A DNA stretch of 64,000 bases from Opitutus sp. GAS368 (GTDB taxonomy: Bacteria; Verrucomicrobiota; Verrucomicrobiia; Opitutales; Opitutaceae): contig CAMDRP010000003.1 in NCBI GenBank assembly GCA_945906965.1, forward strand, positions 1 through 64,000, given 5' to 3'. The notes under the pieces were generated by a model. That model was not told the DNA's origin, made no database searches, and worked only from the letters and a program-made list of their open reading frames with translations. The position numbers and the translations under genes are program-made. The first letter of the stretch is position 1. Every line of letters begins with the position of its first letter. Of the stretch, positions 20,957 to 60,915 are shown one piece after another.

Positions 20957-21775
20957 ATGATACCTGAAAAAAGCAAAAAGCTCTCCTCTTACATCGCCGA
21001 TATGCAGGCGGGCGGGCGGCTGGTTTTTTCACGAAGGCAAGCGGAGCAGGCGCTGGGTATCTTGCGTCGCCCGTTTCTAGACATGGCCGAGCGTCTACAG
21101 AAGAAAGGCAGCCTAATCCACCCACGGAGGGGTTTCTACGTTATAGTGCCCCCTCAATTTATGAGTTGGGGATCGCCCCCTCCAGCATGGTTCATCGATG
21201 ACCTGATGCATCAGGAAGCGTGCCCCTATTATGTGGGCCTGCTAAAAGCCGCTGAGCTTCATGAGGCCGCCCATCAAGCAGTGATGGAATTTCAGGTGAT
21301 AACGCAGAAGCGAATGCCCAAGCTTCGGACCGGCCGCTCAGCTATCGCATTTTATTACAGTAAAAAGATAGCTGCCTTGGAAAGTGGTATCGAGGAACGA
21401 AAAACCGATACCGGTAAAATGCGCATCTCCTCGGTTGAATTAACTGCGCTCGATCTGCTGCGCTATCCGCGCGCAGCCGGCGGTCTCGATAATATCGCGA
21501 CGGTGCTAGCCGACTTAGGCCCTAAGCTCGATGGGAACCGCCTAGCGCTTTTAGCTTCGGTGTTCGAGCGTTCCGTACGACAGCGTCTAGGCTACCTGCT
21601 CACGCGAGCCGGACACACGCGGACGGCCGAGATGCTTCTTCCCGGTCTGGCACCCACCCTTTGGGTTGAACTGGACCCGCTAACGGCGAACGATACTGAG
21701 TTTTCACCCGATCCCATCGACCGTGATCCGCGCTGGCGAGTAATCGTGCGACGCATGCCGGAGGCAGACACATGA
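20957..21775 (+). CDS. abiEi: AbiEi-type antitoxin (type IV toxin-antitoxin), orphan
   Basis: 272 residues. The N-terminal ~80 residues form a winged-HTH-like region (VFSRRQAEQALGILRRPFLD, then LIHPRRGFYVIVPPQF) and the C-terminal part has the AbiEi core PPPAWFIDDLMHQE, YYVGLLKAAELH and MRISSVELTALDLLRYP. AbiEi proteins neutralise the AbiEii nucleotidyltransferase toxin and repress the operon; some loci give phage resistance. The stop overlaps an ATG (ATGA at 21772-21775), the classic junction to abiEii, but the toxin is missing beyond its first codons. Codon use is less GC-biased than in neighbours, a sign of transfer. Confidence 0.85.
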   Translation: MIPEKSKKLSSYIADMQAGGRLVFSRRQAEQALGILRRPFLDMAERLQKKGSLIHPRRGFYVIVPPQFMSWGSPPPAWFIDDLMHQEACPYYVGLLKAAELHEAAHQAVMEFQVITQKRMPKLRTGRSAIAFYYSKKIAALESGIEERKTDTGKMRISSVELTALDLLRYPRAAGGLDNIATVLADLGPKLDGNRLALLASVFERSVRQRLGYLLTRAGHTRTAEMLLPGLAPTLWVELDPLTANDTEFSPDPIDRDPRWRVIVRRMPEADT

Positions 21776-52614: not shown

Positions 52615-52641
52615 GTCGATCTGAACCTAAGCCTAAGTTTC

Positions 52642-52675
52642 AAAAAGAGCGGGTCATTTGACCCGCTCTTTTTTT
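52642..52675. terminator. Bidirectional terminator between pfp and the ebo operon
   Basis: Perfect stem AAAAAGAGCGGGTC / GACCCGCTCTTTTT with a 4-base loop and T-runs on both strands, closing both pfp and the convergent eboF. Confidence 0.9.
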
Positions 52676-52695: not shown

Positions 52696-54069
52696 CTACC
52701 GCAGACACGCCGCGAGCAACCGCTCATGCACCGCCGTCGCCGCGATGGGTTCATCCCCCGCCGTCGCCCCTGTGCCGATCAACACCGGCCACTCCGCTGC
52801 ATCCGCCGGACACGTCCCGTGAGAACCTTTCACCAGCGACGGATCGAGCGAGATCACATCCATCAGCATTCGGAAACCGAGCGCCTTGCGCGCCAGTTTG
52901 CCCAAGACCTTTAATTTCGGAAAGCGAATCAACGGGTCCACAAACAGCTCCACCGGATCGTAGCCGTACTTACGGTGGATGTCGACGCAGCGCGCAAAAT
53001 CCGGCGCCCGCGCCGCGTCATCCCAATAATAATAGGTGAACCAAGCATCCTCCGTCGAAAACGCCACGAGGTCGCCCGAGCGCGCGTGATCGAGTCCTGC
53101 CGCGCGTTGCCCCGCCGCGTCGAGCACGCTCGCCACACCCTCAACGCCCTCGACCGCCGCCCGCACCGCTGCGAGCAACGAGCGGTCGTTCACGTAAATG
53201 TGCGCCACTTGATGATCTACGATGGCGAAGACCTTGCTCGCGCCGCAGTCCAATAACTCCAGCCCGAGCTCTTCCTTGATCGTGATCCAGCCGCGCGCCC
53301 GAAACACCCGGTTCAACGCAATCGTGCGCTTCACCGCCGTGATCCCATATTCCGAAAGCACCACGGAACGCACGCCGCACTGCGCGTAAAAATCCATCAG
53401 CCCACCCGCGACGCGATCAATCTCGCGATAGTCCGCCGCCATCCGCGGATCATCCGGCCCGAGCCGCTGCAGGTTATAATCCAAATGCGGCAAATAAACG
53501 AGCGACAGGTCCGGCCGATGCCGTTCCTCCACCCACTCCGCCGAACGCGCGATCCACTCCGACGACGCGATCCCAGCCCGCGGACCCCAAAACGCTGGAA
53601 ATGGAAACGGCCCGAGGTCCGCCTTGATCTCGTCGCGCATCCGCATCGGGTGCGTGTAAACATCAAATACTTTACGCCCGTCCGCCGGATACATCGGGCG
53701 CGGCGTGATCGACCAATCGGCCGATGAATACATGTTGTACCACCAAAATAATTTCGCGCACGTAAACCCCGGCCGCCGTTCTCGTAACGTCTCCCAGAGC
53801 TTCGGCCCTTGCACGACGTGATTCGACTGTTTCCAAAAATGATGCTCCGCGAGCGTGCGATCGTACCAACCGTTCGCCACACAGCCGTGGCCCGCGGGCG
53901 TGAGCCCCGTTAGATATGTGCTCTGCGCCGTGCACGTCACCGCGGGCAAAACCGGCTTCACCCGGATCAATCCCCCCGCCTGAGCCGCCGCGAGCAGCCG
54001 CGGCGTATCCGGCCCCAATCCGCGCGCGGTGAGCCCGACGACGTTTAGGATCGCCGTACGCTCAGCCAT
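52696..54069 (-). CDS. eboF: EboF-type alkaline phosphatase family protein
   Basis: 457 residues from the ATG at 54069. An AP-superfamily (nucleotide pyrophosphatase) protein: VGLTARGLGPDTPRLL, TCTAQSTYLTGLTPAGHGCV with the nucleophile Thr, YLPHLDYNLQRLG, LSEYGIT and DHQVAHIYV provide metal ligands. No signal peptide. The start overlaps eboD by eight bases, so it is the last gene of the ebo operon. In ebo clusters of cyanobacteria and other bacteria the sixth gene encodes such a protein; its substrate is unknown. Confidence 0.82.
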   Translation of the reverse strand: MAERTAILNVVGLTARGLGPDTPRLLAAAQAGGLIRVKPVLPAVTCTAQSTYLTGLTPAGHGCVANGWYDRTLAEHHFWKQSNHVVQGPKLWETLRERRPGFTCAKLFWWYNMYSSADWSITPRPMYPADGRKVFDVYTHPMRMRDEIKADLGPFPFPAFWGPRAGIASSEWIARSAEWVEERHRPDLSLVYLPHLDYNLQRLGPDDPRMAADYREIDRVAGGLMDFYAQCGVRSVVLSEYGITAVKRTIALNRVFRARGWITIKEELGLELLDCGASKVFAIVDHQVAHIYVNDRSLLAAVRAAVEGVEGVASVLDAAGQRAAGLDHARSGDLVAFSTEDAWFTYYYWDDAARAPDFARCVDIHRKYGYDPVELFVDPLIRFPKLKVLGKLARKALGFRMLMDVISLDPSLVKGSHGTCPADAAEWPVLIGTGATAGDEPIAATAVHERLLAACLR

Positions 54070-55234
54070 AACGTTCCCGCAATTCATCGAACGCCGCCTT
54101 CACCACCGCGCCGTCGATTTCATGAATGTCCAGCCGCACCCCCGGCGCGCGGATCATCGGAATCGTCAAGCGTCCACCGAGGTGCTCCCGAAACTCTTCC
54201 AGCCCGTCCAACATATCCTGTCGGCCCGTCACGCTGCGAATTTCTTTCACCGGCGCGAACAACTCAAAACCGAGCGCGCAAATCACCCCGAGAATACGCT
54301 CCGCCTCGGCCTCCGGCAGCAATCCGGTGCGCCGTGCGTAAATTAGATCAATCGCCATCCCCACCGCGACGGCCTCGCCATGGCTCACGCGAAATTCCGT
54401 GAGCTGCTCCAACTTGTGCGCCGCCCAATGCCCGAAATCCAACGGCCGCGCCGAACCGCGTTCAAACGGATCCCCGCCCGTCGCGATGTGCTCCATGTGC
54501 TGCCGCGCGCTTTCGCGAATCACCGCTTCAAACGCTTCGGGCTCAAATTTCGCCAACGCCGTGACGCGCGCCGCGATAAATTCAAAAAACTTCGCATCGC
54601 GGATCAGCGCGACTTTGACCGCTTCGATCAAGCCCACGCGCCGTTCGCGCTCGGGCAGCCCGCGCAGAAAATCCAGATCGTTGATGATCGCGTGCGGCAC
54701 GCCGAAGGCGCCAAGCCAGTTTTTCTTGCCGAAATAATTTACGCCATTTTTGACGCCTACGCCGCCGTCGCCTTGGCTGAGGCTCGTCGTCGGCAAACGC
54801 ACGAGCGGAATCCCGCGATGCGCCGTCGCCGCCGCGAAACCAACCAGATCCAGCACCGCGCCGCCGCCGACCGCGATCACGTACGAGTGCCGACAAAGGC
54901 CCGCGGCCTCGATCGCCGTCCAAATTTTTTCGAGCTGCGAAAAATCGTTTTTTACCGCTTCGCCGCCGGCCAAGGCCACGGGCTCCGCGGCCAACCGGAT
55001 CGCGTCACCGCGCGCCGCAAACCACCGCGTGATCCTCGCGGCGATGCCCGGAAAAGCTTTTTCCAACCCCGCGTCCCAAAACACCAAGGCGCGGATGCGT
55101 TCACCCGGCTCCCGCGGCGCGAGCGTCTGCGCGAGCGTGAGATTTTCCGGCGCGAACACATCGCGCGTGAAAATGAGCCGATGCTCATTGCGCAGCGTGA
55201 TGGGGAAAGAAACGACAGGGGAGGGCTCGGCCAT
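54062..55234 (-). CDS. eboD: EboD sugar-phosphate cyclase (3-dehydroquinate synthase-like)
   Basis: 390 residues from the ATG at 55234. DHQS superfamily: VIAVGGGAVLDLVGFAAATA, RLPTTSLSQGDGGVGVKNGV, GAFGVPHAIINDLDFL and HGEAVAVGMAID. The loop DGGVGVKNGVN differs from the DSSVGGKTGVN of AroB, so this is the divergent cyclase of ebo clusters, related to 2-epi-5-epi-valiolone synthases. It probably turns a sugar phosphate into a cyclitol. Overlaps eboF by eight bases. Confidence 0.85.
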   Translation of the reverse strand: MAEPSPVVSFPITLRNEHRLIFTRDVFAPENLTLAQTLAPREPGERIRALVFWDAGLEKAFPGIAARITRWFAARGDAIRLAAEPVALAGGEAVKNDFSQLEKIWTAIEAAGLCRHSYVIAVGGGAVLDLVGFAAATAHRGIPLVRLPTTSLSQGDGGVGVKNGVNYFGKKNWLGAFGVPHAIINDLDFLRGLPERERRVGLIEAVKVALIRDAKFFEFIAARVTALAKFEPEAFEAVIRESARQHMEHIATGGDPFERGSARPLDFGHWAAHKLEQLTEFRVSHGEAVAVGMAIDLIYARRTGLLPEAEAERILGVICALGFELFAPVKEIRSVTGRQDMLDGLEEFREHLGGRLTIPMIRAPGVRLDIHEIDGAVVKAAFDELRERYG

Positions 55235-55291
55235 GGACGTGCGAGAATTAGCCCGCATCCCTCGCGCCACCGCAAGGCCGCAATCGCGCGC

Positions 55292-56017
55292 TCAACTGGA
55301 AGCTGCTTTGCGCTGCGCCCACTTGCCGAGCGGCACCGCGGCCGCGCAACCCGCCGCAGGGATCACCGCCGTGGTCGCGAGCAATGCCACCGCGTCGACG
55401 AATGGAATGAACGCGAGCATCTTGCGGACGATTTTCCCCAGTTTCTGCGCCGGCGCGCCGGGGTGATATTCGCGGCGGGCGAGCAGACTCAGCACGACGA
55501 TGTAGACAAAAAGCGCGACGAGCCACGCGACGAAGGCCGGGCCCATCGTTTGTCCGGGCAGCGTCGCCAGTGTCACCGCGAGCATCACGCGACAACCCGC
55601 CATCAACACGACGGAGCCGGTCCAGCGTTTGTGGAGCCAATCGTAGAGCAGAATCGTCGCCGCTAAGCCCGCCGCGGCGAGCGACGAGGCGCCGAGAAAA
55701 ACCAATAGGCTTAGCCCCGCCGCGAGTTGCAACGCGCCGACCCCCGCGACGCTCGAGCGCGCGATGAGCCCGCGCGGAATCGCGCGCTCGGGGCGATGTT
55801 GGCGGTCAAAGTCGGCGTCGAAAGCGTCGTTGAGCGTGGTGCCGCCCGCGTAGGCGAGGCTGCCGGCGAGCGCGGCGAGCAGGAGCAAATGGATCGCTGG
55901 CCAAGAACCCGCGACGGGCGCGGAAAGCACGAGCGCGGCGAGGACGTTGCTCCACACCGACGGGAAATTACCCGCGCGGGCGAGATCGAGCCAGAGGCGA
56001 AGCGATGAAGCGCTCAT
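55292..56017 (-). CDS. eboC: EboC UbiA-family prenyltransferase
   Basis: 241 residues from the ATG at 56017; a GTG at 56041 would overlap eboE by 14 bases and is an alternative. About seven membrane helices. The aspartate motif NDAFDADFDRQHRPERAIP near residue 66 binds the prenyl diphosphate with Mg; the second motif is degenerate (YDWLHKR). UbiA enzymes attach prenyl chains to aromatic or other acceptors. In the ebo cluster the proposed acceptor is the EboD product. Confidence 0.88.
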   Translation of the reverse strand: MSASSLRLWLDLARAGNFPSVWSNVLAALVLSAPVAGSWPAIHLLLLAALAGSLAYAGGTTLNDAFDADFDRQHRPERAIPRGLIARSSVAGVGALQLAAGLSLLVFLGASSLAAAGLAATILLYDWLHKRWTGSVVLMAGCRVMLAVTLATLPGQTMGPAFVAWLVALFVYIVVLSLLARREYHPGAPAQKLGKIVRKMLAFIPFVDAVALLATTAVIPAAGCAAAVPLGKWAQRKAASS

Positions 56018-56027
56018 CGAGGCACGA

Positions 56028-57203
56028 TCAAGCGAGGCCACGGGCGCGGAGCGCGGCGAGCGTCCAATCGTATTCGCCCACGAGTTGATCTTCGATGCTC
56101 ACGCGCAACGCGGGCGGGAGCACTTCCCACGTGTAGGTTTCCATTTCGGCGTGTTGGCAAGCGGTCGGATGCGCCTGCATCCAATCCAGCGCACCGAGCA
56201 GATGGTCCCGCGTGTCGCCAAACGGCGCGCCGGGCGCGGCGTGCAGCGGCAGATGAAAATGAACGCGCCACTCATCGTCAGGCTGCACGGGCGCGGCGTC
56301 GGCGAGCGCATCAGGCAAATCAACGTAGCGGCGGCGAACGATGCCGGTGGCGGGGGAGCCCACGACGACTTGGTGGAGATACGTCGGCTCGACGAAAGCG
56401 GCGAGCGCGGCGCGGCCGGCGGCATCGGGCTTCACGCGGAGCGCGGAGCTGAGGTGAATTTTACTTAGGCGCAGGCCGGCGACGACGAGGCGGTCGAGCG
56501 CGACGGGCGCGGATTCAAATTCCACGCCGAGGTGGCAACAATCGTAGTTCACGCCAACGCGGCGGAGCAGTCCCTCGGCATCAACGGCACGATCGCTCGT
56601 GCGCCAGGCGTTGAAAAAATCCACGGTCTCGGGTGTCGTCTCGAACGTGCAGCACGGTTCCGGCTCGAGCCCGAGGTGTAGGTCGCGGCCGGTGCGTTCG
56701 GAAAGTTCGGCAATGGTGCGGCCGATGGCGGTGACGTTGGCGAAAATCGCGGCGCGGCGCGCGGGGTCGTCTTGGGTCCAGGCTTTGAACGAGCCCGGTA
56801 CGGTGCTCACGCTACCGGAGACGCCCGCGGGGACAAGTTGCGCGATGAGCGCGAAAAGGCGTTGCGTGTACGCGAGGCGCTCGGGCGTGGACCAATCCGG
56901 CGCGTAGACCTGCTCCTTCACGCGCGTGCCGTGGAAGCTGCCGTAGGGAAATCCATTAATCGTGAAAACGTAGCAGTCGTGCTCGTCCAGCCAGTGGCGG
57001 AAGGCGGTGAGCGCGGCCGGTTGCGCGAGTTCTTCGGCCGCGCGGGCGCCGAGCCGCAGACCGATCGCGTAAGCTCGACCGGCGGCGACGCGGCGGCGAA
57101 CGACAAGCGTGTGGCGCTCAAGAGTGTCAAACGTCTGCGCCCACGTTTCGCCGCGGTGGACGTTGGTGCAGTAGGCGAGATGCAGGCCGTGGTTGAGTTG
57201 CAT
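56028..57203 (-). CDS. eboE: EboE TIM-barrel protein (sugar phosphate isomerase/epimerase fold)
   Basis: 391 residues from the ATG at 57203 (MQLNHGLHLAYCTNVHRGET). That opening and the later TINGFPYGSFHG, HLGLEPEPCCTFE, GVNYDCCHLGVEF and HFHLPLH segments are the EboE family pattern, with the barrel's metal ligands (E, D/H). Its role in the pathway is unproven. It lies eight bases behind eboB and ends 10 bases before eboC. Confidence 0.85.
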   Translation of the reverse strand: MQLNHGLHLAYCTNVHRGETWAQTFDTLERHTLVVRRRVAAGRAYAIGLRLGARAAEELAQPAALTAFRHWLDEHDCYVFTINGFPYGSFHGTRVKEQVYAPDWSTPERLAYTQRLFALIAQLVPAGVSGSVSTVPGSFKAWTQDDPARRAAIFANVTAIGRTIAELSERTGRDLHLGLEPEPCCTFETTPETVDFFNAWRTSDRAVDAEGLLRRVGVNYDCCHLGVEFESAPVALDRLVVAGLRLSKIHLSSALRVKPDAAGRAALAAFVEPTYLHQVVVGSPATGIVRRRYVDLPDALADAAPVQPDDEWRVHFHLPLHAAPGAPFGDTRDHLLGALDWMQAHPTACQHAEMETYTWEVLPPALRVSIEDQLVGEYDWTLAALRARGLA

Positions 57204-57211
57204 CCGACGAA

Positions 57212-58018
57212 TCAAGCGCCGAGGCGAAACTTCGGGCACTGCGAGAGGAAGCGCACGGGGTTTTGGTAAAGCACGTGATCGACGTACGCGGCGGTGTGGC
57301 CGCGGCGGCGCATTTCAAAAGCGGCCTTCGGGACGGCGAGCGGATCACTCACGCCCCAGTCGCAGGCGGAGTTGAGCCAGATGCGGTCGTGGCCGGAGGT
57401 TTCCAACATATCCACCGCGCGGGGCGGCGAGGATTTGGAATCGGGATAAAGTGTGATGCCGGCCCAGAAACCGCGGTCGAGGACGAGGTTAACCGTGTGT
57501 TCTTCGACGTGGTCGATGATAACGCGTTCGGGTTTCACGCCCGGATGCGAGCGGAGCAAATCGACGATCAAGCGCGTGCCTTTGAGTTTGTCCTCGAGGT
57601 GGGGCGTGTGGACGAGAATGAGCTGATTGTATTTCACCGCGAGCTCGACGTGTTGCTCGAAGACCTTGAGCTCGTTGCGCGTGTTGCGATTGAGGCCGAT
57701 CTCGCCGATGCCGAGGACGTTGGGCTTCGTCAGGAATTCCGGGATCATCGCGAGGACATCCGCCGCGAGGGCGAGGTCTTCGGCTTCCTTCGGGTTGATG
57801 CACAACCAGGCGAAATGGGGGAGGAGAAATTTCGCCGCGCGGGCCGGTTCGTACTCGGTGATCTGGCGGAAATAATCGCGAAAACCGTCAACCGAGCTGC
57901 GATCAAAGCCGGCCCAAAACGCGGGTTCACAGACGGCGACGCAACCGGCCGTGACCATGGCCTGATAGTCGTCGGTGGTGCGGCTCACCATATGACCGTG
58001 GGGCTCGATGTAGCGCAT
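57212..58018 (-). CDS. eboB: EboB TatD-like metal-dependent hydrolase
   Basis: 268 residues from the ATG at 58018. Starts [17 protein letters not shown], giving the HxH metal pair, with [32 protein letters not shown] and LNSACDW contributing further ligands. The TatD family hydrolyses phosphodiester or amide bonds; here it is the form found in ebo operons. Longer frames upstream are low-complexity and overlap the preceding gene, so they are not used. Confidence 0.85.
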
Positions 58019-58028
58019 GGTCGGAGAA

Positions 58029-58361
58029 TTATTTAGCCCGCTTAGGGGACGACGGTTTTTGCCACGCACCGAGGGCGGCTTGGCCCGAAGTGATGACGTC
58101 GGGCTGCGTGGTAGGATCGCTGAGTTGCTCGAGGATGCGGCGCGCACGGGCAGGTTGGCCGTCGACGAGAATTTTGGCGGCTTGGCGCAGGGCGGCGCAG
58201 CGGAAGTCGCCCGCGGCGCCATAGCGTTCGACGCGGTCAAGGAACGCCGCGACCTCGATGAGCTTGGCCCGCACCGGCACGAAACTATGATCCACGACGG
58301 CGCGTTGCGCGGCGAGGGCGGGCAAGCGACCCGAGGTGCGGGAAGGGCGTGGCTTGGTCAT
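58029..58361 (-). CDS. Short protein at the head of the ebo operon (eboA position, no EboA similarity seen)
   Basis: 110 residues, basic at both ends, helical middle ([37 protein letters not shown]). EboA of other clusters is about twice as long; I see no match to its pattern. The gene is separated from eboB by only ten bases and is the probable first gene of the operon. It could be a truncated or lineage-specific replacement of EboA, or an unrelated gene. Confidence 0.6.
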
Positions 58362-58412: not shown

Positions 58413-58443
58413 CGGGCGCGCCGGAAATCAACCGGCGCGCCCG
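58413..58443 (-). terminator. Hairpin upstream of the ebo operon / downstream of the gluconate dehydrogenase subunit
   Basis: Perfect 12-base stem CGGGCGCGCCGG / CCGGCGCGCCCG with loop AAATCAA. Read on the minus strand it follows the stop at 58455 and is followed by a moderately T-rich sequence (GTTTACTTT). Confidence 0.6.
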
Positions 58444-58454
58444 CCGGCCTGAGC

Positions 58455-59114
58455 TCAGGCGAGGCCGAGGTGTTTGAGCGCGGCGGGCGTGGGTCCCTCG
58501 TAGGTGACGGTGGGGACGTTGCCGACGTAGCCGAGGTCTTTCATGCCTTCGGGCGTGGTATAAAAACCGCCCGAGGTGAGGTCGCGGAATTTATTAAAAA
58601 AGAGCGCGGCAGTTTTGAACTCGGGCTTGGCCTTCGGGACGTAGCAGATGTCGTCGCAGAGGGCGCGTTGTTGGCCAGCGATGAGATTGGAGAAGTCATT
58701 ACCGAAGCGTTTCTGGGATTCGGCGTCGATCCAGACGAGGCCGTCGAGGATGAGGGCGCGGTCTTTGTCATGGCCGGGATAGGGCGCGCTGATCCATTCG
58801 TCGATGAAGTCGGGCACACCGACAGCGGAGGCCGCGGGGGATTTCGCGTCAGCGGGGATGATGACGTCGCAGAGCGCGGTGGCGGTGCGGCGTTGACCGG
58901 CGGTAAAGGTGAGGGCCCAGAAATCGCCGGGTTTGTAGATTTTGTTGAGCTCGGGATCGGTGCCGTAGCCGACGGCGGCCTTGGTCGTAGCGGTGTCGGT
59001 ACCGGCAGCGCCGGCTCGGTCCATGATGGCGATCGAAGCGGCGGCGGTCAGCATCCACTTGATGGCGGTGCGGCGATCCAGACGGGACCGCAGGGAAGAA
59101 TCGGACGGGATCAT
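58455..59114 (-). CDS. Gluconate 2-dehydrogenase subunit 3 family protein
   Basis: 219 residues. Tat signal DRRTAIKWML with a hydrophobic stretch to AGAAG. The body matches Gluconate_2-dh3: TAGQRRTATALCDVIIPAD and GVPDFIDEWIS. These subunits help export and maturation of GMC flavoproteins, which lack their own signal. The ATG is one base behind the GMC stop, so translation is coupled. Confidence 0.88.
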   Translation of the reverse strand: MIPSDSSLRSRLDRRTAIKWMLTAAASIAIMDRAGAAGTDTATTKAAVGYGTDPELNKIYKPGDFWALTFTAGQRRTATALCDVIIPADAKSPAASAVGVPDFIDEWISAPYPGHDKDRALILDGLVWIDAESQKRFGNDFSNLIAGQQRALCDDICYVPKAKPEFKTAALFFNKFRDLTSGGFYTTPEGMKDLGYVGNVPTVTYEGPTPAALKHLGLA

Positions 59115-59115
59115 G

Positions 59116-60915
59116 TTAGAGGTTTCCTTTCTTCATTTCGGCGAGGAGGTAATCGCTGGCGCGCCAGGCGAGCGCCATGATGGTGAGCGTGGGATTCTTG
59201 TCGGCGTTACTGGCAAAGGGGCCGCCGTCGTTGACGAAGATGTTTTTAACATCCCAGGTCTGGCCCCATTGGTTGGTGACGGATTTCTTGGGGTCGGCGC
59301 CCATGATGGTGCCGCCGACTTCGTGGATGATCTTGCCGCCGGGCTCGATGGCTTGGAGGCCGGTGGCGTCGAGCTTGTTGGGTTTGCCGCCCATGGCGGT
59401 GATGATCTCGGCAAACGTGCGCTGCATGTGCGCGGCTTGGCGCGTCTCGTGGTCAGACCATTTCCAGTGGAAACGCAGGACGGGCGTGCCCCATTTGTCT
59501 TTCACGGTGGGGTCGAGGTCGCAGTAGGAATCGGCGTTAGGGATCATTTCGCCGCGACCGGCGAAGCTGACGAAGGTGCCGTAATAGCGGCGGGCATCTT
59601 CTTTGAATTTGCGGCCGTAGCTGCCTTCGGTGAGACCGGCGACAGCCGTGGCGGCGCCAAGGCCGGGCATGCTGCGACCCGTTTGGAACTCGATGTGGTA
59701 GCCGCGAGCGAAGTCGAGTTTACCGGCTTTTTGTTCCTGATAGAGCCACCACGGGACATACATGTGGGCACCACCGGCGCCGTCCTCGTTGTGGGCGGGC
59801 ATGTTTTCGAGGAGCGGGATTTGACCGCCGAGGCGCGCGCCCACGGTGTCCATGATGTATTTGCCGACGAGGCCGCTGGAGTTGGCGAGGCCGTTGGGGT
59901 AGCGCGGGGATTTGGAATTGAGCAGAATGCGCACGGACTCGGCGGAGCTCGCCGCGAGGACAACGACGCGGGCTTTCAACGCGTGGGCTTCGCCGGTGAC
60001 GCGGTCGATGTAGATAACGCCGGTGGCCTTGCCGTTTTCGTCCATGGTGATCTCGCGCACCATGGCATTGGGCAGGATATCGAGGTTGCCCGTGGCGAGG
60101 GCGGGCGGGAGATGGACGGTGGTGGATTGGTAGTTGGCCTTGATCGAGCAACCGCGGCCGCACTGCGTCGCCCAGAAACACGCGGCGCGATCGCGCATGG
60201 CCTGTGCGAGGATGCGTTGGGCGGTGGGATTCTGAGGGTGCAGTTTCGCGGGGATGCGCTCGGCGTCTTGCTTCACGCTGAGAACGGCGCGGTGAATCGG
60301 GATGACAGGCAGGCCGAGTTTCTTGGCGCGTTTTTGCGCGAGGAGTTCGCCGGCGCGGGCCTTGGGCGGAGGCAGAAGCACGCCTTCGCTAGAATTGGGG
60401 GTGTTTTCGAGGCCTTCGTTGGAGCCGTAGACGCCGATGAGCATCTCGACTTTATCGTAGTAGGGCGCGACGTCTTCGTAGCTGATGGGCCAGTCGAGGC
60501 CGAGCCCATCGCGGGAGTAAGGTTTGAAATCGTAGGGGCCGTTGCGCAGGGAGATGCGGCCCCAGTGGTTGGTGCGACCACCGAGCATGCGCGCGCGCCA
60601 CCACCAAAATTGGCGCGTAGGATCGCTCGATGCGCTCGTGTAGGGCTCCCCTGGAACCTGCCAACCGCCGTCGACCGTGGAGTCATGAAAACCGAAAGGT
60701 TTATCCACCGTGCTCGAGCCGGCGAGTGGCGCTTGGCCGTTGGTCTGAAACATCGCGGTTTCTTTGACCGGGTCGTAGTTGCGCCCGGCTTCGAGCATGA
60801 GAACTTTCACACCCTCCATCGCGAGCGTGTAGGCCGTCTGGCCGCCACCGGCACCGGAACCGACGACGATCACATCATAAGTGGGCTGAGTCTTACTGGC
60901 AGTGATGATGGGCAT
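59116..60915 (-). CDS. GMC-family FAD-dependent oxidoreductase
   Basis: 599 residues. FAD motif VIVVGSGAGGGQTAYTLAMEG near residue 16, GGRTNHWGRISLR, TQCGRGCSIKANYQSTT, and a C-terminal GGTIMGADPKKS then NIFVNDGGPFASNADKNPTL. No signal peptide; it likely travels with the Tat-bearing subunit encoded downstream. Oxidises a sugar or alcohol such as gluconate; substrate unknown. The usual cytochrome c subunit gene is not next to it. Confidence 0.88.
   Translation of the reverse strand: MPIITASKTQPTYDVIVVGSGAGGGQTAYTLAMEGVKVLMLEAGRNYDPVKETAMFQTNGQAPLAGSSTVDKPFGFHDSTVDGGWQVPGEPYTSASSDPTRQFWWWRARMLGGRTNHWGRISLRNGPYDFKPYSRDGLGLDWPISYEDVAPYYDKVEMLIGVYGSNEGLENTPNSSEGVLLPPPKARAGELLAQKRAKKLGLPVIPIHRAVLSVKQDAERIPAKLHPQNPTAQRILAQAMRDRAACFWATQCGRGCSIKANYQSTTVHLPPALATGNLDILPNAMVREITMDENGKATGVIYIDRVTGEAHALKARVVVLAASSAESVRILLNSKSPRYPNGLANSSGLVGKYIMDTVGARLGGQIPLLENMPAHNEDGAGGAHMYVPWWLYQEQKAGKLDFARGYHIEFQTGRSMPGLGAATAVAGLTEGSYGRKFKEDARRYYGTFVSFAGRGEMIPNADSYCDLDPTVKDKWGTPVLRFHWKWSDHETRQAAHMQRTFAEIITAMGGKPNKLDATGLQAIEPGGKIIHEVGGTIMGADPKKSVTNQWGQTWDVKNIFVNDGGPFASNADKNPTLTIMALAWRASDYLLAEMKKGNL

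What the first reader, a model, noticed from the sequence alone, without database searches (positions are those of the whole stretch)
52696..58361. Near-complete ebo operon in a probable verrucomicrobial genome
Five tightly packed minus-strand genes encode a TatD-like hydrolase, EboE-type TIM-barrel protein, UbiA prenyltransferase, AroB-like cyclase and alkaline phosphatase family protein. That combination is the ebo cluster known from cyanobacteria (scytonemin export), Pseudomonas edge-biofilm work, and eustigmatophyte plastids and Phycorickettsia. Gaps are -8 to +57 bases, so it is one transcript. The product is still unknown; enzyme types suggest a prenylated cyclitol.
Basis: partly seen in the sequence, partly recalled or inferred. 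Interest (0 to 1): 0.8.

Follow-up and report, generated by a model that had tools for sequence, protein, structure and literature searches.

The report
Complete EboG-type ebo operon in Opitutaceae
A freshwater verrucomicrobial genome carries all six genes of the 'ebo' operon, a widespread gene set of unknown product, and comparison with relatives shows its ring-making enzyme can be replaced by inositol-phosphate synthase, which hints that the unknown product is built on an inositol-like ring.

Summary
On the minus strand at 52696-58361 lies an operon with TatD-like EboB, EboE, UbiA-like EboC, AroB-like EboD and EboF. It is complete rather than near-complete. Its profile hits the short ORF next to eboB in Deinococcus and Gemmatirosa (E 5e-19 to 1e-23). 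The genome is an Opitutaceae (Verrucomicrobiota) MAG. In 194 verrucomicrobial genomes EboE and EboD co-occur in exactly the same 69, and only 33 of those have them linked. Comparisons beyond the finding: (1) in Actinomycetota, Halobacteria and Gemmatirosa clusters inositol-3-phosphate synthase stands in place of EboD, never with it; (2) EboD has the ValA-type residues DFGH and His, not the DHQS ones; (3) EboF lacks four of six canonical metal ligands family-wide; (4) Opitutaceae EboC lacks about 50 residues (roughly two helices). The best-supported reading is synthesis of a prenylated cyclitol, probably for membrane traffic of a small molecule. The product is unproven. 'Edge biofilm' is a misreading: EDB means 'edible'. 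New member of a known kind, with a useful clue to an open question.

The parts
   Evidence: Profile from verrucomicrobial copies hits the short ORF beside eboB in Deinococcus sp. QL22 (1e-23), Deinococcus AB2017081 (5e-19) and Gemmatirosa (1e-23); found beside or near eboB in 78 loci; no EboA match anywhere in the window
57212..58018 (-). eboB (268 aa): TatD/amidohydrolase-type metal enzyme
   Evidence: PF01026; HxH (H7, H9), E106, H137, H170, D220 invariant in six relatives; nearest solved relative AF_1765, 3guw, 9e-21; tree places it on the EboG side, 100/99
56028..57203 (-). eboE: xylose-isomerase-like TIM barrel (ATG 57203 preferred; longer GTG start at 57239)
   Evidence: NF035939 427.7 bits, cut-off 250; model pLDDT 87, nearest folds L-ribulose 3-epimerase, UlaE, IolI, AsbF; invariant E192, D233, H236, H289, H327, H329, E365, E367 across phyla
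55292..56041 (-). eboC (249 aa): UbiA-superfamily prenyltransferase, shortened in this family
   Evidence: PF01040 53.8 bits; best NCBIfam model EboC, below its cut-off; N71-D72-x2-D75-x3-D79 kept; about 50 internal residues missing relative to 13 other EboC
54062..55270 (-). eboD: sugar phosphate cyclase (ATG 55234 likely)
   Evidence: NF004852 517.7 bits, cut-off 333; D278 (DFGH) and H363 align to ValA residues, no DHQS NLGH/DKK; a second, AroB-type match elsewhere in the genome
52696..54087 (-). eboF: alkaline-phosphatase-superfamily protein with altered metal site (ATG 54069 likely)
   Evidence: PF01663 192 bits; V17, Q207, E246, Y247 at NPP ligand positions, T51, D203, H423 kept
52640..52675 (.). 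14-bp perfect inverted repeat with A/T runs on both sides: bidirectional terminator between eboF and the convergent phosphofructokinase gene
   Evidence: Sequence; fold -25.2 kcal/mol, z -5.4
58413..58443 (-). 12-bp G+C-only hairpin after the upstream gene (gluconate dehydrogenase subunit 3-like): likely marks the end of the preceding unit
   Evidence: z -2.8; the T tail is weak

Best explanation
This is a complete ebo operon of the EboG type, order G-B-E-C-D-F, in an Opitutaceae genome (identity: about 0.95 likely). Most likely mechanism (about 0.4 likely, inferred): EboD closes a sugar phosphate into a cyclitol; EboE, an epimerase/isomerase-fold metal enzyme, and EboB, an amidohydrolase-fold metal enzyme, remodel it; EboC, in the membrane, joins it to a prenyl chain; EboF acts on a phosphate-bearing intermediate or has become a binding or transferase protein; EboG is a small helical partner, perhaps of EboB, its usual neighbour. 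The resulting prenylated cyclitol would sit in the membrane and help carry or store a small molecule, as ebo mutants of Nostoc suggest. Shown here: gene content, order, family membership, co-occurrence, the EboD/inositol-3-phosphate synthase exclusion, and residue patterns. Inferred: every reaction, the substrate, the product and the biological role.
For: Six-gene content and order. EboE and EboD present in the same 69 of 194 genomes with none discordant although only 33 pairs lie within 10 kb, so selection, not only linkage, keeps them together. EboG in 34 genomes, 33 of them EboE-positive. Inositol-3-phosphate synthase in place of EboD in nine clusters of Actinomycetota, Halobacteria and Gemmatimonadota, and never with EboD; the two EboB halves of the tree each contain such a swap. 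EboD shares DFGH and the C-terminal His with ValA, a cyclase of sedoheptulose 7-phosphate, and lacks the DHQS NLGH and DKK; the genome has a separate AroB and two other UbiA genes, so EboD and EboC are not its housekeeping enzymes. EboE model matches sugar and inosose epimerases/isomerases. Nostoc mutants in ebo genes hold the scytonemin monomer in the cytoplasm (PMC6282210).
Against: No ebo product has been isolated in the papers held. The one biochemical result on an EboC homologue is farnesylation of 8-hydroxyquinoline-2-carboxylic acid, an aromatic, not a cyclitol (PMC9235831). The EDB cluster of Pseudomonas NZI7, which contains a full ebo set, yields indoles in E. coli (review PMC9655573). 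EboC here lacks about 50 residues and the family lacks the second Asp-rich UbiA motif, so prenyl transfer itself is open. The replacement of EboD was seen in a modest, plasmid-derived sample; the two enzymes might serve different products. Co-occurrence counts ignore shared descent.
Confidence: 0.55

Rival explanations
1. The ebo proteins act together as a translocation aid rather than a pathway to a secreted metabolite: the operon makes a lipid carrier, or forms a membrane complex around EboC, that moves an aromatic small molecule to the periplasm.
For: Deletion of any tested ebo gene in Nostoc leaves the scytonemin monomer in the cytoplasm and no gene-specific intermediate accumulates (PMC6282210). 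EboF has an altered metal site family-wide and EboC lacks part of the UbiA fold here, both compatible with non-catalytic roles.
Against: EboB, EboD and EboE keep full sets of metal/catalytic residues across phyla, which argues for chemistry. No scytonemin genes were seen beside this operon. Compatible with, rather than opposed to, the best explanation if the carrier is the prenylated cyclitol.
Confidence: 0.25
2. EboC prenylates an aromatic acceptor such as a quinoline acid, and the cyclase EboD supplies an aromatic precursor, so the product is a prenylated aromatic.
For: Three EboC homologues farnesylate 8-HQA and quinaldic acid in vitro (PMC9235831); the EDB cluster is linked to indoles.
Against: Inositol-3-phosphate synthase, whose product is not a route to aromatics, replaces EboD in three phyla; 8-HQA was the best of a panel of aromatics only, and the R145A mutant was as active; EboD lacks the DHQS signature.
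Confidence: 0.12
3. EboD is a second 3-dehydroquinate synthase and the operon belongs to the shikimate pathway.
For: NCBI names the family 3-dehydroquinate synthase and the match to NF004852 is strong; nearest solved structures are DHQS.
Against: Asn in DHQS NLGH is Asp, DKK is FRE, and His363 matches ValA; an AroB-type gene is elsewhere in the genome and in nearly all ebo-negative genomes; published phylogeny separates EboD from DHQS (PMC5133447).
Confidence: 0.03
4. A decayed or partial operon, with a truncated eboC and a missing eboA.
For: EboC is 249 aa against 282-335 in most others and falls below the NCBIfam EboC cut-off; no EboA.
Against: All six frames are open; the short EboC linker is shared by 33 Opitutaceae loci, so it is an old, kept form; EboG replaces EboA; proteins are 93-99% identical in sister genomes.
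Confidence: 0.03

Closest known systems
EboG-type ebo operon of Deinococcus (plasmid clusters of Deinococcus sp. QL22 and AB2017081; variant defined in PMC5133447)
   Same: Same six families; eboG directly before eboB, then eboE, eboC; no eboA; EboB in the same half of the tree
   Different: Deinococcus order is D-G-B-E-C-F, here G-B-E-C-D-F; EboC there is full length (292-297 aa); EboE 38% identical
EboA-type ebo operon (ABCDEF; Bacteroidota, Cyanobacteria, eustigmatophyte plastids, Phycorickettsia)
   Same: EboB, C, D, E, F homologous
   Different: eboA in place of eboG; different gene order; EboB separated by a long, 100/99-supported branch
Inositol-phosphate-synthase-type clusters of Streptomyces, Embleya, Nonomuraea, Halobaculum, Halocatena, Gemmatirosa
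   Same: EboB, EboC-like, EboF and (bacteria) EboE adjacent, with EboA or EboG in the bacteria
   Different: Inositol-3-phosphate synthase plus, where annotated or read here, an extra sugar-phosphate-isomerase-like protein instead of EboD
EDB ('edible') cluster of Pseudomonas fluorescens NZI7
   Same: Contains a full ebo set (PMC6282210)
   Different: Embedded with other genes; linked to indoles that repel nematodes (PMC9655573); nothing of that kind tested here

Membership tests
ebo operon (PMC5133447) | EboE, TIM_EboE NF035939 | tested here: met
   427.7 bits against cut-off 250
ebo operon (PMC5133447) | EboD, cyclase clade apart from DHQS | tested here: met
   NF004852 517.7 against 333; over cut-off in exactly the EboE-positive genomes; separate AroB present; no full cyclase-superfamily tree was built here
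ebo operon (PMC5133447) | EboC, UbiA superfamily | tested here: inconclusive
   PF01040 met (53.8/34.2) and EboC is the best NCBIfam model, but 83 of the 250 bits asked. The Deinococcus EboC in accepted ebo operons are also named only 'UbiA family'; profile made here links them (3e-52 to 7e-50)
ebo operon (PMC5133447) | EboB, TatD-like | tested here: met
   PF01026; 57-60% identical to the TatD gene of Deinococcus ebo clusters
ebo operon (PMC5133447) | EboF, PF01663 | tested here: met
   192 bits against 23; 56% identical to Deinococcus EboF
ebo operon (PMC5133447) | eboA or, exclusively, eboG | tested here: met
   EboG present, EboA absent; no locus with both. Homology to the Deinococcus ORF was tested; the paper's own EboG sequence list was not at hand
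ebo operon (PMC5133447) | clustered, same strand | tested here: met
3-dehydroquinate synthase (AroB) | DHQS active-site signature (NLGH, DKK) | tested here: not met
   DFGH and FRE in 18 of 18 and most EboD
2-epi-5-epi-valiolone-type cyclase | ValA residues (DFGH Asp, C-terminal His) | tested here: met
   D278 and H363 invariant in 18 EboD, aligned to ValA; substrate not tested
NPP phosphodiesterase | six metal ligands plus nucleophile Thr | tested here: not met
   Thr, one Asp, one His kept; Asp to Val, His to Gln/Leu, Asp to Glu, His to Tyr
UbiA prenyltransferase | first Asp-rich motif NDxxDxxxD | tested here: met
   N71, D72, D75, D79 invariant in 18
UbiA prenyltransferase | second Asp-rich motif | tested here: not met
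   Reduced to A(R/K)xE in the EboC set
scytonemin/metabolite export function | cytoplasmic retention of a small molecule in mutants | not testable with these tools
   Known only from Nostoc (PMC6282210)

The most novel reading that the evidence does not exclude
The ebo product is a prenylated inositol or inositol-like cyclitol: EboD and inositol-3-phosphate synthase are interchangeable suppliers of the ring, EboA and EboG interchangeable small partners, and all four combinations exist in nature, making ebo a two-socket modular pathway for a membrane cyclitol lipid shared by bacteria, halophilic archaea and algal plastids.
Probability: 0.3. Interest if true: 0.72.

Novelty: new member of a known kind. 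Interest (0 to 1): 0.5.

Why it matters
The product of ebo has been open since the operon was named, although it spans many phyla and algal plastids. The papers held do not describe the exchange of EboD for inositol-3-phosphate synthase, a characterised enzyme class, and it narrows the guess for the ring. It also gives a direct test: feed or trace inositol in a Streptomyces cluster and compare with an EboD-type cluster. The altered metal site of EboF warns against assuming a phosphatase step, and the Verrucomicrobiota, with about a third of complete genomes positive, are a large untapped group for such work.

Tried and rejected
Viral contigs for EboE: no match. EboE against solved structures by sequence: none; fold search only gives the superfamily. 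EboG fold against solved structures: no match below E 1; its model is three helices and says little. I considered that EboG plus EboB is a separate two-gene system, because many other Verrucomicrobiota have that pair apart from the rest; rejected because 17 of 18 such genomes, two of them Opitutales controls, carry EboE elsewhere. Considered EboC decay; rejected. Hydropathy count of EboC helices was too crude to give a helix number and is not used beyond the alignment gap. One regex count (L045, 282) is an artefact, and 26 loci were not scored by it. The promoter scan found nothing convincing upstream of eboG. The two primary papers on the NZI7 EDB cluster were not held.
Full report
OBSERVATION. 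The minus strand at 52696-58361 holds six tightly packed open frames. EboE and EboD exceed curated cut-offs (427.7/250 and 517.7/333 bits); EboB, EboC and EboF fall in PF01026, PF01040 and PF01663. EboC is the weak point: its best NCBIfam model is EboC, but at 83 bits against a cut-off of 250.

THE SIXTH GENE. The 110-aa frame 58029-58361 matches no library family. It is conserved in every complete relative examined, and a profile of it hits the short ORF directly before the TatD gene in two Deinococcus ebo clusters and one Gemmatirosa cluster, E 5e-19 to 1e-23. PMC5133447 defined eboG as the short, poorly conserved gene that replaces eboA in Deinococcales and some others. An EboA profile finds nothing in the window. 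The operon is therefore a complete EboG-type operon, order G-B-E-C-D-F. A tree of EboB splits EboA-type from EboG-type clusters with 100/99 support and places the window among Opitutaceae on the EboG side, in line with the published bipartition. AlphaFold gives EboG three helices (pLDDT 82) with no fold match.

HOST AND CONTEXT. The nearest named records are Opitutae and Opitutaceae MAGs, several of freshwater origin by their isolate names. The operon lies between a convergent phosphofructokinase gene, with a perfect 14-bp hairpin bounded by A/T runs (z -5.4), and a GMC oxidoreductase/gluconate-dehydrogenase-3 pair that ends in a 12-bp G+C hairpin. One transcript is likely but not shown. Neighbours are conserved in the genus.

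DISTRIBUTION. In 194 verrucomicrobial genomes of at least 90% completeness, EboE over cut-off occurs in 69 and EboD over cut-off in 69, and these are the same 69 genomes. Only 33 have the two within 10 kb. EboG is found in 34 genomes, 33 of them EboE-positive. The Fisher value (2e-54) ignores shared descent and should not be read as a probability. In many non-Opitutales loci eboG and eboB stand alone, but 17 of 18 such or control genomes carry EboE elsewhere. In most of the family's cultured members EboE is absent, so presence is patchy.

THE CYCLASE SWAP. Eighteen ebo clusters or part-clusters from plasmid records were read. Nine carry inositol-3-phosphate synthase and no EboD: Streptomyces (three), Embleya (two), Nonomuraea, Halobaculum, Halocatena and Gemmatirosa. 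Nine carry EboD and no inositol-3-phosphate synthase. None has both. The haloarchaeal clusters have no clear EboE; they have sugar-phosphate-isomerase-like proteins. Combined with the small gene, four combinations exist: A with EboD (Proteobacteria, Bacteroidota), A with inositol-3-phosphate synthase (Actinomycetota), G with EboD (Verrucomicrobiota, Deinococcus), G with inositol-3-phosphate synthase (Gemmatirosa). Since the swap appears in both halves of the EboB tree it probably happened more than once. The two ebo papers do not mention inositol and a literature search found no paper joining the terms; papers outside the held library were not checked. Within Verrucomicrobiota inositol-3-phosphate synthase is rare (3 of 194; absent here). 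Inference: EboD probably supplies an inositol-like or related cyclitol ring.

RESIDUES. EboD keeps the metal ligands and lysines of the superfamily, has DFGH where DHQS has NLGH, FRE where DHQS has DKK, and His363 where ValA has its His. The naming of these ValA residues as substrate-determining (Asp281, His360) is from my own knowledge of the ValA work; the alignment is. EboF, against Xanthomonas NPP, keeps the nucleophile Thr51, Asp203 and His423, but has Val17, Gln207, Glu246 and Tyr247 at four metal-ligand positions, in 19 of 19 (17 of 19 for Gln) sequences over several phyla; the ligand assignment in NPP is established knowledge. A two-metal phosphodiesterase is therefore unlikely. EboC keeps NDxxDxxxD but has A(R/K)xE in place of the second Asp-rich motif, and in Opitutaceae about 50 residues between that motif and the last helices are missing (33 loci short, 14 scored long). 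EboB keeps a full TatD-type ligand set. EboE is a confident model (pLDDT 87) closest to L-ribulose 3-epimerase, UlaE, IolI and AsbF, with E192, D233 and E365 conserved across phyla.

MECHANISM. Best supported: cyclitol formation (EboD), remodelling (EboE, EboB), prenyl transfer (EboC), with EboF and EboG as unknown helpers; the lipid would serve metabolite traffic as in Nostoc (PMC6282210). Against it stand the aromatic preference of EboC homologues in vitro (PMC9235831) and the indole link of the EDB cluster (PMC9655573). No step has been shown biochemically for this lineage.

CORRECTION. EDB means 'edible', not edge biofilm.

VERDICT. Real, complete, a new member of a known kind. The comparative by-products (cyclase swap, EboF site, EboC gap) are what give it interest.

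Noticed in passing
L119:9394-10593; L123:4502-5701; L126:2399-3553; L130:5556-6752; L132:3187-4374; L133:3292-4422: Inositol-3-phosphate synthase sits in ebo-like clusters that lack EboD, in three phyla, with an extra sugar-phosphate-isomerase-like protein.
   Followed up: partly
window 52696-54087 and 18 EboF relatives: EboF has lost four of six canonical NPP metal ligands across phyla; published annotation as a phosphate hydrolase may be wrong.
   Followed up: partly
window 55292-56041 and Opitutaceae loci L031-L061: EboC of Opitutaceae lacks about 50 internal residues, roughly two membrane helices.
   Followed up: partly
L064-L110 (non-Opitutales loci): eboG and eboB occur as a pair, or near each other, away from the other ebo genes, which lie elsewhere in the genome.
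   Followed up: partly
L027:6590-7410: eboB is split over two frames in a same-family genome; a frameshift or a sequencing error.
   Followed up: no
window 20957-21775: AbiEi-type antitoxin gene in the only low-G+C stretch of the window (52% against about 62%), probably recently acquired.
   Followed up: no
window 58455-60915: GMC oxidoreductase with a gluconate-dehydrogenase-subunit-3-like partner directly upstream of the operon, conserved in the genus.
   Followed up: no
G239:C235:22382-22582: The one verrucomicrobial genome of the sample with an EboG-like match but no EboE (E 4e-11).
   Followed up: no
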